Source: Bacteroidales bacterium | GTDB lineage: Bacteria; Bacteroidota; Bacteroidia; Bacteroidales; UBA932 | NCBI GenBank assembly: GCA_015060325.1 | Contig: SUYQ01000004.1 | Span: forward strand, 62,001 to 126,000 | Length of the DNA stretch: 64,000 nucleotides | Reading direction: 5' to 3' | In this document: positions 19,346 through 59,109 of the stretch, piece after piece | Position numbering within the stretch: position 1 is the first letter of the stretch | How the letters are laid out: every line of letters starts with the position of its first letter | Position numbers and translations under genes: made by a program | The notes under the pieces: generated by a model | Database searches by the model: none | Seen by the model: only the letters and a program-made list of their open reading frames with translations | What the model was told of the DNA's origin: nothing

Positions 19346-19564
19346 TTAGATTTTAACTCTGTAAACAGTGATCACCGAATCAGGGCATACGACTGCACAG
19401 TTTGAACATCCTATGCATGCGTCACCCACCATTTCGGCATAGTGATAACCCTTACTGTTGACCATTTTGGCGAGCTCGATGCTCTTGGTCGGACAGTTCT
19501 CAACGCAGACGCCGCAGCCTTTGCACTTCTGCGTATCTACTTCGATTGCTCCTTTGAATGCCAT
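19346..19564 (-). CDS. korD: 2[4Fe-4S] ferredoxin subunit of the 2-oxoacid oxidoreductase
   Basis: The 72-residue protein has two classic cluster motifs, CKGCGVCVENCP (about 14-25) and CIGCSNCAVVCP (about 51-62), separated by the usual spacer. It passes electrons from the enzyme to free ferredoxin. It is the first gene of the operon. Its ATG, first four codons and 5' leader are duplicated 170 bp upstream around an inserted hairpin element, so its translation initiation region has been rebuilt by that event. Confidence 0.93.
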   Translation of the reverse strand: MAFKGAIEVDTQKCKGCGVCVENCPTKSIELAKMVNSKGYHYAEMVGDACIGCSNCAVVCPDSVITVYRVKI

Positions 19565-19596
19565 TATAAATAGTGTTTAGTGGTTTGTATTAATGT
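19553..19596. repeat. 44-bp direct repeat, gene-proximal copy
   Basis: The 44 bases cover the first four codons and leader of the ferredoxin gene. The identical second copy is at 19723-19766, giving a period of 170 bp. Confidence 0.9.
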
Positions 19597-19722: not shown

Positions 19723-19734
19723 TTTGAATGCCAT
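19720..19734 (-). other. Minicistron Met-Ala-Phe-Lys-stop created by the duplication
   Basis: The distal 44-bp copy repeats the korD start region and reads ATG GCA TTC AAA, after which the junction with the insert gives TAG. If the original promoter lies upstream, ribosomes would first meet this five-codon frame with the native leader. Whether it is translated is unknown. Confidence 0.5.
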
Positions 19735-19766
19735 TATAAATAGTGTTTAGTGGTTTGTATTAATGT
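19723..19766. repeat. 44-bp direct repeat, distal copy
   Basis: This copy is identical to 19553-19596. The gap from 19565 to 19940 otherwise holds the inserted element and the promoter of the amidohydrolase gene. I see no other gene in it. Confidence 0.9.
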
Positions 19767-39045: not shown

Positions 39046-39051
39046 AGCAAT

Positions 39052-39392
39052 AGGCAGAACAGTAAGCCGGGTTCTGTTTTATCTTGTCATTTATCTTCGC
39101 AACCTACCCCCTGGAATAGAACGAGTAGCCCTTTTGCCCTTGCGGGTGTTCCAGTATACATGGTCTTGCTGGTCCTGGTGCCGTCACCGCCGTATGTCGC
39201 CACACGACGTCGTGAGCTCTTGCCTCGCGGTTTCACCCTTACCCTTGCGGGCGGTCTGTTTTCTGTTACGGCATTCATAAGATTACTCCCATCTGTGCTT
39301 TCCACAGCAGGATACTCTGCCCAGTCCGGACTTTCCTCTGAAACGAGTTTCAGCGACAAGTCATTCTACCTACATAGCTTATCTATTGTTCT
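39052..39392 (-). ncRNA. rnpB: RNase P RNA (class A)
   Basis: This is the catalytic RNA that trims tRNA 5' leaders. On the minus strand the conserved 5' segment GAGGAAAGTCCGGAC appears at about 39326-39340, and the conserved 3' segment (GGTAGGTTGCGAA...AACCCGGCTTAC) ends it. The ends pair as GCAGAACA with TGTTCTGC (P1 stem). The size of about 340 bases fits. A -7 box (TACCTTTG on the minus strand, 39394-39401) lies right before the 5' end. The exact ends are approximate. Confidence 0.96.
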
Positions 39393-40270: not shown

Positions 40271-40295
40271 AGAGGGCCGTTCAGGCGGCCAGGAA

Positions 40296-40381
40296 ATATA
40301 GCAGGGGTGCCACGGGCGACTGTGGCTGAGATCATACCCATGAACCTGATCCGGATAATGCCGGCGTAGGAAAGCGTATCT
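40296..40381 (+). promoter_or_regulatory. TPP (thiamin pyrophosphate) riboswitch
   Basis: The conserved parts of the thi element are in order: GGGGTGCC (40304-40311), GGCTGAGATCATACCC (40324-40339), GAACCTGATCCGGATAAT (about 40342-40359) and GCCGGCGTAGGAAAG. When TPP binds, expression of the downstream gene should fall. The next gene, a TonB-dependent receptor, starts about 57 bases on, a leader long enough for an expression platform that hides the start. I did not see a clear terminator, so control is probably at translation. Confidence 0.95.
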
Positions 40382-40437
40382 CATTGTACATTAAGGTTTT
40401 GCCTTTTTGTCTGCCCCTTGCATTAATGTGTTACATT

Positions 40438-42888
40438 ATGCGAGGTTTTTTATTTTTTACAGCGATCATGTCGCTGATTCCGGGCATCGCACAAGGTGCG
40501 GAGCCTGAAGGCACAGTCGAGAAGCTCGACAGTGCAGTAGTCTCTGTTTCCAGAGCCGGGGATTCTACCCCGGTCACTTACACGATGGTTTCAAGTGAGC
40601 AGCTGCGTTCGGTCAATCCGATGAACTCTTTGCCTATGGCGCTGGCGCTTCAGCCTTCCGTTGTGACTGTTAATGAAGGTGGTACTGGCCTAGGGTATTC
40701 GAAGATGACTGTCCGAGGCTCCAAAGGATCGCAGATCAATGTGACCTTGAACGGCATAACTCTCAATGATGCAGAGTCGCAGGAGGTGTTCTGGGTCAAT
40801 ATTCCGGCTTTGTCCAGCCTGCTTTCAAGCGTCCAGCTGCAGCGTGGCCTTGGCACCTCGGCTGCCGGTCCTGGGGCTTTCGGAGCAAGTATAAACATGA
40901 GTACTGCGAGCGTCGGGGCAGATCCTTATGCGTCTGTAGATCTTGGGTATGGATCATACGGAACGTTTACGGCTTCAGCAGCTGTAGGTACAGGATTGAT
41001 GAAGTCAGGATTGTATTTTGATTTTGCTTATTCAAGAGGACTTACAGACGGGTATATAAGGAATGCATTCGCAGATGTTCAGTCTGCTCTTGCGGTTCTG
41101 GGATGGATGAATGAAAGGAATTCGCTGCGGCTTACCTGGCTATTCGGTGACCAGCATACCGGCATTACATGGCATGGAATAGACTTGGCTCAGTATGAGG
41201 CTGACAGACGGTATAATCCGGCTGGAGAGTATTACGATGCTTATGGTAATGTGCGTTACTATGATAATGATACAGACAACTATACGCAGCATCATCTACA
41301 GCTTAACTATACACGCCGGTTAGCGGAACGCCTTGTGTGGACTTCGACCTTCAACTGGACAAAAGGAGACGGATATTATGAGAATTACAAGTCTGGGAAG
41401 AGCTTCTCAAAATATAATTTCGAGGATGACCGGGAAGGAGATTTCATAGTGCGCGAAGCTATGGACAATCATTACTTCGTCTTGAATTCGGATGTCCGCT
41501 ATACTTCTGATCTTCTGTCTGTTACTGGAGGCGTGAATCTTTCCAGGTATGACGGAGACCACATAGGCAAGGTGCTTTGGAGTGATGTTCTGGGGGCGGA
41601 CTATGACTATGGGTCACACAAATGGTACCTCAATAATGGTCTGAAGCATGAAGCAAATGCATTTGTCCGTGCCGAGTGGAGTCCGCTTGCATGGATGACG
41701 GCGTATGCAGATCTGCAGTACAGGGGAGTGTGGCTGGATATGGCAGGACCGGAGGATGACCAGATCCCGCTGGACTATTCCACTGACTGGCAGTTTCTTA
41801 ACCCTCGGGCTGGACTGTCCTTCCATTGGGATCAGCATCAGAAGGCATATGTCTCGGCAGCGCTTGGTCATCGTGAACCTGGTCGCAGCGACATCAAGGA
41901 GAATATAAAGAATGCATGGGTGGCTCAGCAGGCAGGCATTGACAGTGAGGGAGTTACGTTGAAGCCGGAGAAGATGCTCGATGTAGAGGTCGGCTACAGC
42001 TATGTTTCCGAAAAGGTCTCAGCTTCAGCAAACATCTACCTTATGGAGTATTGGGACATGCTTCTGGAGACAGGACGTCTGTCGAATGTGGGCTATGCGA
42101 TCAAGGAGAACGTGTCGCGTTCATGGAGAAGGGGAGTCGAACTTGCTGCTTCTTGGCAGGCTCTTCCGTGGCTTCGCGCAGATGCCAATCTTACCTTGAG
42201 TCTCAACCGCATCAAGGACTATACTGAGTTTGTCCAGCATGTTGATACATATGACTATTGGTCAGAAACCGGCAGGACCACTGCCATGAATTATGGTACG
42301 ACCACCATGCTCATGTCCCCGTCAGTCACAGGAATGGCCCGGCTGTCTTTCTCTCCATGGCGTGGAATAGCTTCCAATTCGCTGAAAACCATCATGTTGT
42401 CACTGGATGGAAAGTATGTCGGCAAGCAGTATATGGATAATACCATGACAGACAGCCGTTCGATCCCGGCCTACTTTGTCTCGAATCTGTCGTTGAGTTA
42501 TGAGATCCCTCTCAGGAAGAGATCCTTCGCTGCCGCTCAGGATGACACCTGTCATTTCGACCGCGATGTCCACACTTCTCATTCCGACCGCGATGCCCGC
42601 TCCTGTCATTTCGACCGCGATGGTCACACTGCTCATTCCGATCGCGATGCCCACTCCTGTCATTCCGACCGAGGTGGTCACATTTGTCATTTCGACCGAG
42701 CGGAGCGAGTGGAGAAATCTAAACTACGTGTATCATTCTACATCAACAACCTCTTCAACAACATGTACTACGCCGACGGCTGGTGCTGGAAGAACATCGT
42801 TGAAGAAGACGGAGCCCTGATAGACGGCATCGGCGTCTACCCTCAGGCTCCGCTCAACTTCATGCTCAAACTCAGCTGGCAGTTCTGA
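40438..42888 (+). CDS. TonB-dependent outer-membrane receptor, predicted thiamin importer
   Basis: This 816-residue barrel should import thiamin or a thiamin precursor. The function is inferred from the TPP riboswitch directly upstream, the usual arrangement for thiamin receptors in Bacteroidales. A signal peptide (about 1-20) precedes a plug domain (MNSLPMALALQPSV, VRGSKGSQINVTLNGITLND, LSSVQLQRGLG, about 60-160). A 22-strand-type barrel ends in FMLKLSWQF. Residues 695-761 are translated from an inserted repeat element and consist of His/Asp-rich units; the element is in frame and the strands on either side (YFVSNLSLSYEIPL and KLRVSFYINNLFNN) are intact. I use the ATG at 40438; 40426 is an alternative, and the frame also opens upstream with TTG inside the riboswitch region. 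The genes for the inner-membrane thiamin transporter and thiamin pyrophosphokinase are not next to it. Confidence 0.85.
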   Translation: MRGFLFFTAIMSLIPGIAQGAEPEGTVEKLDSAVVSVSRAGDSTPVTYTMVSSEQLRSVNPMNSLPMALALQPSVVTVNEGGTGLGYSKMTVRGSKGSQINVTLNGITLNDAESQEVFWVNIPALSSLLSSVQLQRGLGTSAAGPGAFGASINMSTASVGADPYASVDLGYGSYGTFTASAAVGTGLMKSGLYFDFAYSRGLTDGYIRNAFADVQSALAVLGWMNERNSLRLTWLFGDQHTGITWHGIDLAQYEADRRYNPAGEYYDAYGNVRYYDNDTDNYTQHHLQLNYTRRLAERLVWTSTFNWTKGDGYYENYKSGKSFSKYNFEDDREGDFIVREAMDNHYFVLNSDVRYTSDLLSVTGGVNLSRYDGDHIGKVLWSDVLGADYDYGSHKWYLNNGLKHEANAFVRAEWSPLAWMTAYADLQYRGVWLDMAGPEDDQIPLDYSTDWQFLNPRAGLSFHWDQHQKAYVSAALGHREPGRSDIKENIKNAWVAQQAGIDSEGVTLKPEKMLDVEVGYSYVSEKVSASANIYLMEYWDMLLETGRLSNVGYAIKENVSRSWRRGVELAASWQALPWLRADANLTLSLNRIKDYTEFVQHVDTYDYWSETGRTTAMNYGTTTMLMSPSVTGMARLSFSPWRGIASNSLKTIMLSLDGKYVGKQYMDNTMTDSRSIPAYFVSNLSLSYEIPLRKRSFAAAQDDTCHFDRDVHTSHSDRDARSCHFDRDGHTAHSDRDAHSCHSDRGGHICHFDRAERVEKSKLRVSFYINNLFNNMYYADGWCWKNIVEEDGALIDGIGVYPQAPLNFMLKLSWQF
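42520..42720. repeat. Dispersed repeat element inserted in frame in the TonB receptor, copy 2
   Basis: The 201-bp element runs from AGATCC to AAATCT and belongs to the family at 17391, 54453 and 58341. Its middle is a tandem array of roughly 27-base units based on TGTCATTTCGACCGCGATG, pairing into 54-base higher units. Its length is a multiple of three, no stop codon occurs in the receptor frame, and it adds 67 residues. Confidence 0.85.
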
Positions 42889-58340: not shown

Positions 58341-58389
58341 AGATCCTTCGCTCCGCTCAGGATGACAGGTGTGACAAACGAGATGACAA
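58341..58389. repeat. Dispersed repeat element, copy 4
   Basis: AGATCCTTCGCTCCGCTCAG leads to GGATGACA and a second GATGACA 30 bases on. It is the shortest of four family members in the window. Confidence 0.65.
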
Positions 58390-58409: not shown

Positions 58410-58425
58410 AGTTTTGCAGATTTAT
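58410..58425. repeat. 16-bp direct repeat flanking repeat A, left copy
   Basis: AGTTTTGCAGATTTAT here and at 58594-58609 bracket the 153-bp repeat copy A. Confidence 0.75.
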
Positions 58426-58573
58426 GTCATGGACATGCAACGGGCTGACAATCAGCAGAATGCCTATCAACACGGTGGGTCAAAATGACCCACCGTGTTG
58501 ATGGTTAAGTTATTGGTAGATAAGGAGTTGTGTGACCATTGGTACTGTGTGGATAACGGATTGATGCTTATTA
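58421..58573. repeat. 153-bp direct repeat, copy A, with a 17-bp perfect hairpin
   Basis: It matches 58957-59109 at an offset of 536 with only a few differences, mostly near the end. It carries ATCAACACGGTGGGTCA and its complement TGACCCACCGTGTTGAT with an AAA loop (58466-58502). Near its end it has TGTGGATAA (58548-58556), a perfect DnaA-box sequence that copy B lacks. No T-run follows the hairpin. Confidence 0.9.
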
Positions 58574-58956: not shown

Positions 58957-59109
58957 TTTATGTTATGGACATGCAACGGGCTGACAATCAGCAGAATGCC
59001 TATCAACACGGTGGGTCAAAATGACCCACCGTGTTGATAGTTAAGTTATTGGTAGATAAGGAGTTGTGTGACCATTGGGACTTCGGGGATAGCGGATTGA
59101 TGTTCATTA
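58957..59109. repeat. 153-bp direct repeat, copy B, with a 19-bp perfect hairpin
   Basis: This is the second copy of the repeat at 58421-58573. The hairpin extends to 19 bp (59000-59040) through a single change (G to A) that lets two more bases pair. The copy ends one base before the -33 box of the lipoprotein promoter at 59111. Confidence 0.9.

What the first reader, a model, noticed from the sequence alone, without database searches (positions are those of the whole stretch)
42520..42720. Dispersed repeat inserted in frame into the predicted thiamin TonB receptor and translated as His/Asp-rich units
Seen: a 201-bp block with the ends and core words of a repeat family found elsewhere in the window lies inside the receptor gene at codons 695-761. 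It keeps the frame, holds no stop, and encodes six units of nine residues of the type C/S/A-H-F/S-D-R-D-x-H-x. It falls between two normal barrel strands near the C-terminus, likely at a turn. Known: Rickettsia palindromic elements can insert in genes and be translated. Inference: this is a similar case in Bacteroidales, where the 27-base period protects the frame, and the His/Asp units could bind metals or simply be tolerated.
Basis: partly seen in the sequence, partly recalled or inferred. Interest (0 to 1): 0.8.

Follow-up and report, generated by a model that had tools for sequence, protein, structure and literature searches.

The report
Mobile-like DNA hairpins translated inside genes
In a likely gut-dwelling Bacteroidales bacterium a 201-base dispersed hairpin repeat lies in frame inside an outer-membrane receptor gene and is predicted to be translated as a floppy 67-residue loop, and the same genome carries such in-frame repeats inside at least eleven housekeeping genes, so likely mobile DNA has repeatedly added tolerated loops to its proteins.

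Summary
Bases 42520-42720 hold two inverted hairpins of different class (28 and 36 bases, heads facing) with five 27-base half-hairpin units between them, in frame in an 816-residue TonB-dependent receptor behind a TPP riboswitch. The genome (likely genus Cryptobacteroides) holds 135 and 104 copies of the two hairpin classes, reversed-pattern control 0. In 79 stretches around listed copies I curated 27 islands in frame in 19 genes; in 11 genes (murB, metG, mutS, aroC, gcvT, lpdA, tilS and others) one NCBIfam match spans an insert. Unit spacings are multiples of 3 in 24 of 24 cases inside genes, 54 of 163 elsewhere. Inserts are read in four different frames, so the peptide is hardly what is selected. 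Relatives carry other lengths or other hairpin classes at the same turns of the receptor, murB and tilS. AlphaFold2 leaves the receptor insert unstructured. Best reading: CGTC/TGTC-type REP dimers, comparable to Rickettsia palindromic elements, inserted at permissive turns, tolerated and translated. Half-unit arrays and recurrent turns are the new part.

The parts
40293..40389 (+). TPP riboswitch upstream of the receptor gene
   Evidence: Rfam RF00059, 61.5 bits, gathering score 54.3
40438..42888 (+). TonB-dependent receptor gene that hosts the insert (816 residues plus stop)
   Evidence: open frame; Pfam Plug and OMP_b-brl_3; TonB receptors as best fold matches
42520..42720 (+). in-frame insert, 201 bases, residues 695-761: two inverted hairpins, heads facing, with half-hairpin array between
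42520..42547 (-). left terminal hairpin, short class (AGATCC...GATGACA; in the reverse direction TGTCATCC...GGATCT)
   Evidence: 104 copies of the class in the genome
42545..42679 (+). five 27-base units, each opening with the 5' half of a long hairpin (TGTCATTTCGACCG type)
   Evidence: copies at 42545, 42572, 42599, 42626, 42653
42685..42720 (+). right terminal hairpin, long class (TGTCATTTCGACC...GGAGAAATCT), read as CHFDRAERVEKS
   Evidence: exact match to the 30-base pattern; 135 copies of the class

Best explanation
The 201-base block is a head-to-head pair of dispersed REP-type hairpins with a tandem array of half-hairpins between them, lying in frame in a TonB receptor gene, where it was likely inserted as mobile DNA at a permissive turn, likely grew by 27-base steps, and is predicted to be translated as a disordered, tolerated loop. 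Shown: two inverted hairpin ends, more than 200 genomic copies, complementary hairpin arms that covary, in-frame copies in many genes, spacings that are all multiples of three inside genes but not elsewhere, and different states of the same turn in relatives. Inferred: insertion by a transposase acting on the hairpins, growth by duplication of head halves, decay by in-frame deletion, exposure of the loop to the periplasm, translation, and absence of a selected function.
For: Copies: 135 and 104, reversed-pattern control 0. Hairpin: 306 of 316 copies matching a general pattern in the 79 stretches have fully complementary arm triplets, of 10 triplet types (12 with the inner pair); the next inner pair, which the pattern limited to C or G, is C-G or G-C in 315. 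Dimers: among the 306, 54 head-to-head neighbour pairs, 48 of two different arm types, against 11 tail-to-tail. Genes: 27 curated islands in 19 genes; one NCBIfam stretch spans an insert in metH, mutS, metG, lpdA, an LL-diaminopimelate-type aminotransferase, murB, gcvT, aroC, tilS, aroE and rsmE. Frame: 24 of 24 unit spacings divisible by 3 in genes, 54 of 163 elsewhere; per array, all spacings are multiples of 3 in 12 of 12 in-gene islands with two or more heads; 0 of 25 hairpins in the closed reverse frame. Relatives: receptor turn stretch of 33 residues in 49 of 76 parsed loci against 99 here; G066 carries a two-hairpin version, and G026 a version 39 bases shorter that keeps the last six bases. 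DNA match of the turn to the hairpins: 34, 33, 24, 18 and 15 in five distinct turns, control maximum 14. Structure: insert residues 695-758 at pLDDT below 50 between strands 679-692 and 761-770. MurB with three inserts keeps its fold (best match 4jay, TM 0.90 by target length); the first and third insert fall in stretches under pLDDT 50, the second in blocks of about 67.
Against: No transposase is tied to the hairpins: none of 7 Y1-transposase loci has one of six searched classes within about 1.5 kb. No target-site duplication and no empty site from the same species was obtained. Head-to-tail pairs are common (63), unlike the published CGTC families. Complete hairpins are also absent from the second, open, reverse frame (0 of 25), so the empty closed frame is weak evidence. 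The curated set was chosen for open frames. That no split gene was seen rests on reading 30 of 49 candidate pairs by eye, and gene-breaking insertions may be lost by selection. Translation and tolerance are inferred from open frames and family matches; there are no expression data. The genome is a draft (93 percent complete).
Confidence: 0.85

Rival explanations
1. The His/Asp units are a functional periplasmic module, for example metal-binding or contacting TonB, kept and amplified by selection.
For: Five near-regular nine-residue units rich in His and Asp in one receptor; growth in multiples of three.
Against: The same hairpins in other genes are read in other frames or strands and give unrelated peptides. 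Orthologues at up to 86 percent identity over the covered part, such as P0004 and P0006, have a short turn. The array is predicted unstructured. Growth in multiples of three is also seen in arrays of mutS, aroA, aroC, aroK and tilS.
Confidence: 0.08
2. A plain expanding minisatellite that arose locally in the receptor gene, without a mobile element.
For: A 27-base tandem array; insert length differs between relatives.
Against: Both ends are dispersed hairpins with over 100 copies each. Head-to-head pairs of different arm types recur, 48 of 54. A relative has the two hairpins with hardly any array.
Confidence: 0.04
3. Assembly or binning artefact: repeat sequence wrongly placed in the receptor.
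For: Draft assembly of 43 contigs; repeats are a common source of misassembly.
Against: Frame is kept on both sides. Other genomes of the genus have related elements at the same turn. Eleven further genes show the same pattern with family models spanning the inserts. The protein's 90-percent cluster covers 12 contigs and 35 member sequences, though how many carry the insert was not seen.
Confidence: 0.03

Closest known systems
CGTC-tagged REPs (Di Nocera and others 2013, PMC3733652; passages and sections 6 and 15 read)
   Same: Tag CGTC or TGTC at one end, A-T and T-A as first stem pairs, short stem and loop, head-to-head dimers (heterodimers in some families), high copy number, no dedicated transposase found, in-gene copies that encode peptides; Bacteroidetes is among the five phyla listed.
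   Different: Here arrays of 5' half-hairpins sit between the dimer partners, head-to-tail pairs are common, the window's hairpins end in ATCT (published tails mostly CCA), and the same turns of the same proteins are hit in several species by different hairpin classes. The paper reports about the same site for different REPs only in recB of two Xanthomonas species.
Rickettsia palindromic elements (RPE)
   Same: Palindromic repeats that lie in frame in genes and add segments to proteins. PMC3733652 states that RPE-4 and RPE-6 of R. conorii are CGTC repeats and that R. conorii proteins with RPE-1 at the N-terminus are expressed.
   Different: Other phylum; hairpins of 26-36 bases in dimers and arrays. 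No RPE sequence was compared here.
REPINs / RAYT-mobilised REPs (GTAG-tagged; recalled, and abstract and passages of PMC3733652)
   Same: Dispersed hairpins in inverted pairs.
   Different: No GTAG tag, and no hairpin of the family near any of the 7 Y1-transposase matches of the genome.

Membership tests
[quoted passage not shown]
   TGTC at the window's right hairpin and array units and, reversed, the left one; CGTC itself in the class found in G056, G021 and G026
CGTC-tagged REPs | A-T and T-A as first two stem pairs, stem of 8-9 and loop of 4-5 | tested here: inconclusive
   AT...AT was part of the search pattern, so it is not independent there; 306 of 316 have complementary triplets next to it. 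Stem 8 with loop 5 holds for the short class only if two G-A mismatches are counted as pairs (read from the sequence).
CGTC-tagged REPs | unpaired tail, mostly CCA | tested here: not met
   both window hairpins end in ATCT, read directly. The patterns contained ATCT, so the other copies are a biased sample. The paper gives CCA as the usual, not universal, tail.
CGTC-tagged REPs | mostly head-to-head dimers, tail-to-tail rare, head-to-tail negligible | tested here: inconclusive
   head-to-head 54, tail-to-tail 11, head-to-tail 63 within 300 bases
CGTC-tagged REPs | no dedicated transposase flanked by the repeat | tested here: met
   7 Y1-transposase loci, none with a hairpin of six searched classes within about 1.5 kb
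Rickettsia palindromic elements | palindromic repeat in frame in many unrelated genes | tested here: met
   27 curated islands in 19 genes
Rickettsia palindromic elements | sequence homology to an RPE family | not tested
   no RPE sequence was fetched
RAYT-mobilised REPs | GTAG tag and a RAYT gene flanked by the repeat | tested here: not met
   the window's hairpins carry TGTC, not GTAG; no hairpin beside the 7 Y1 matches
TonB-dependent receptor (host protein) | plug domain and beta-barrel | tested here: met

The most novel reading that the evidence does not exclude
Cryptobacteroides species host several families of hairpin elements whose half-units grow in frame inside housekeeping proteins, and the same few turns in each protein are hit again and again by different families: a standing, lineage-wide generator of new disordered protein loops, some of which may be kept for use.
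Probability: 0.3. Interest if true: 0.8.

Novelty: new variant of a known kind. Interest (0 to 1): 0.66.

Why it matters
Insertion of mobile DNA into essential genes is expected to be destroyed by selection. Here one genome keeps in-frame copies in murB (three), tilS (four), aroA, aroC, aroE, aroK, ispE, metG, mutS and others, and its relatives show the same turns at different stages: short, one hairpin, two hairpins, arrays, or remnants. That would make the birth, growth and decay of protein insertions readable step by step, give a natural map of permissive sites in essential proteins, and warn that annotated insertions in these genomes may be translated repeats and not domains.

Tried and rejected
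Metal-binding module: rejected as the general explanation because other reading frames occur. Local minisatellite: rejected because both ends are dispersed. A Y1 transposase as visible mobiliser: seven loci examined, no hairpin nearby. Split genes: 49 candidate left/right pairs at 37 islands; I read 30 pairs (28 islands; both frames at least 140 residues) by eye and judged them two separate genes or antisense frames, with some upstream genes running on into the repeat before their stop; no clear split gene; the 19 other pairs were not read. A protein search restricted to the insert found only the window's own cluster among 24 candidates, which says little, since that search needs shared exact words. 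In one search my pattern parsed 76 of 110 loci; 34 were dropped, and L062, which is not among the turns printed there, was read. The first orthologue script missed many loci and was redone, where 3 of 110 lacked one half. ORFs include antisense frames and leaders; I removed them by eye when curating the 27 islands, so that set is in frame by choice. The 79 stretches rest on capped lists of places (searches list fewer than the 120 and 104 counted), so not every copy was covered. Of 30 proteins scanned with NCBIfam, 11 had no family at the thresholds used: six antisense or doubtful frames and L214, L218 (+), L217, L198 and L230. The names GH95, YfhO-like, ferredoxin and dipeptidyl peptidase are my own recognition; no model spans those inserts. 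Literature: eight library searches, whose lists are capped at 10-20 papers, showed no title or abstract on such elements inside Bacteroidales genes; PMC3733652 was read in passages and two sections, others only as search listings.

Full report
What is there. The block is at 42520-42720, 201 bases, inside an 816-residue frame counted from ATG 40438. It opens with an inverted short hairpin (42520-42547), continues with five 27-base units that each begin with the 5' half of a longer hairpin, and closes with one complete long hairpin (42685-42720). The receptor has plug and barrel domains, its model matches TonB receptors best, and a TPP riboswitch lies just upstream, so thiamin as the ligand is a fair inference.

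The ends are dispersed. The window belongs to a 2.47 Mb draft genome of 43 contigs. Named loci with related receptors are uncultured Bacteroidales or Bacteroidia, Candidatus Cryptobacteroides and two Rikenellaceae bacteria, from which I infer the genus. The long hairpin has 135 copies and the short one 104, with 0 for the reversed pattern. In a sample of 101 genomes of the genus 35, this one included, carry the long hairpin; this one has by far the most (next highest 30). A general pattern found 316 hairpins in the 79 fetched stretches, and 306 have fully complementary arm triplets of 10 types. Neighbouring hairpins within 300 bases are head-to-head in 54 cases (48 of two types), tail-to-tail in 11, head-to-tail in 63.

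Many copies are inside genes and in frame. A scan of the 79 stretches gave 230 islands; 33 lie in open frames of at least 240 residues with flanks on both sides, antisense frames included. After removing antisense and leader cases by eye I kept 27 islands in 19 genes (listed in the script, checked). NCBIfam models cover an insert in a single stretch in 11: metH, mutS, metG, lpdA, an LL-diaminopimelate-type aminotransferase, murB, gcvT, aroC, tilS, aroE and rsmE. Six score above the curated cut-off of such a model (mutS, metG, lpdA, murB, gcvT, aroC), and tilS does with its N-terminal domain model; metH, the aminotransferase, aroE and rsmE score below the cut-offs of the models that span the insert. 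aroA and aroK match in two stretches, of which only the better is shown, and the ispE stretches shown end before its insert. MurB has three inserts and tilS four.

Frame and peptide. Spacings between successive half-units are multiples of three in 24 of 24 cases in the in-gene islands and in 54 of 163 elsewhere, counting spacings up to 40 bases. Per array, 12 of 12 in-gene islands with two or more heads have only multiples of three. The in-gene set was chosen for open frames, but an open frame does not by itself demand such spacings. Of 25 complete hairpins found in the named genes (two in leaders, one with 8 mismatches), 13, 3 and 4 are read in the three forward frames and 5 in one reverse frame; none is in the reverse frame that holds a stop, and none in the remaining open reverse frame. 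Peptides therefore differ wholly between genes, which speaks against selection for the His/Asp sequence.

Relatives. Among 110 receptor loci the turn is usually short: in 49 of 76 parsed loci the measured stretch is 33 residues, here 99. G066 (L063, and L091 with the same C-terminal tail) has both hairpins with almost no array; G026 (L062, and L092) has the left hairpin and only the last bases of the right one, 39 bases less; L093 has the left hairpin. L101 and L067 show more decayed hairpins, the latter of other class and orientation; their DNA scores 18 and 15, against a control maximum of 14 over 912 control windows, so L067 is only just above it; L103 (13) is not above it. That the close relatives share one old insertion is likely but not proven by a tree. 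Two receptors in other genomes, G024 and G031, have a stop in the matched part.

The same turns elsewhere. For murB and tilS I aligned the 30 best-scoring loci each, out of 87 and 99 genomes with a match, own included. At the first murB insert site 8 of 30 show a readable repeat-derived peptide, from at least three hairpin classes, one with three tandem half-units and a complete hairpin tagged CGTC. At one tilS site 4 of 30 do. These tallies are by eye; DNA was looked at for seven of the eight murB cases. The CGTC class has 28 copies in G056, 15 in G021, 5 in G026, 1 each in this genome, G066 and G024, and none in G032 and G039.

Structure. AlphaFold2 with 66 sequences gives a mostly confident barrel, while the first 150 residues, plug included, are poorly predicted; residues 695-758 have pLDDT below 50 and no secondary structure, between strands 679-692 and 761-770. 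That this turn faces the periplasm follows from TonB-receptor topology (recalled), not from a computation. For MurB (29 sequences) the model matches known MurB structures, best 4jay with TM 0.90 by target length; its first and third insert fall in stretches under pLDDT 50, the second in blocks of about 67.

Mechanism. Shown steps: dispersed hairpins, dimers, in-frame presence, spacings in multiples of three in genes, different states in relatives. Inferred steps: a transposase inserts hairpin dimers; most landings in genes are lost; those at turns that keep the frame persist; head halves duplicate in tandem; elements shrink by deletions that keep the frame. No transposase was linked to the hairpins, as PMC3733652 also states for CGTC repeats.

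Known or new. CGTC-tagged REPs, including RPE-4 and RPE-6, are the closest kind, and in-gene REPs that encode 20-30 or, in clusters, 43-82 residues are described (PMC3733652, sections 6 and 15). Tag and lack of a transposase agree, but the tail differs and head-to-tail pairs are common, so I say it works like these and is probably related, without filing it as a certain member. New, as far as the eight searches show, are the half-hairpin arrays with frame-selected spacing and the repeated use of the same turns by different hairpin families across species.

Noticed in passing
window 39047-39372 (-): Bacterial RNase P RNA (RF00010, 182 bits) upstream of the receptor.
   Followed up: no
window 58421-58573 and 58957-59109: A 153-base direct repeat, 94 percent alike, that holds a near-perfect palindrome around CACGGTGGGTCAAAATGACCCACCGTG; a short-class hairpin lies just upstream at 58341-58366.
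   Followed up: no
window 19553-19596 and 19723-19766: A 44-base exact direct repeat 170 bases apart.
   Followed up: no
L243:2722-2829 (aroK) and L201:2501-2611 (ispE): In-frame tandem half-unit arrays in two further housekeeping genes, 24-base period in aroK and seven-residue units in ispE, the same build as in the window.
   Followed up: partly
L313:2437-2586 (tilS of G039): Near the fourth tilS insert site a relative carries four 33-base tandem units GHDDVVTRDRD or close to it, of unclear origin.
   Followed up: no
L251, L207, L218, L257 of G000: Several genes run on into the repeat at their 3' end, giving C-terminal extensions, for example CHSERSEESLQQK.
   Followed up: no
L171-L177: Seven Y1-type transposase matches in the genome, four over the Pfam cut-off, none with a family hairpin within about 1.5 kb.
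   Followed up: yes
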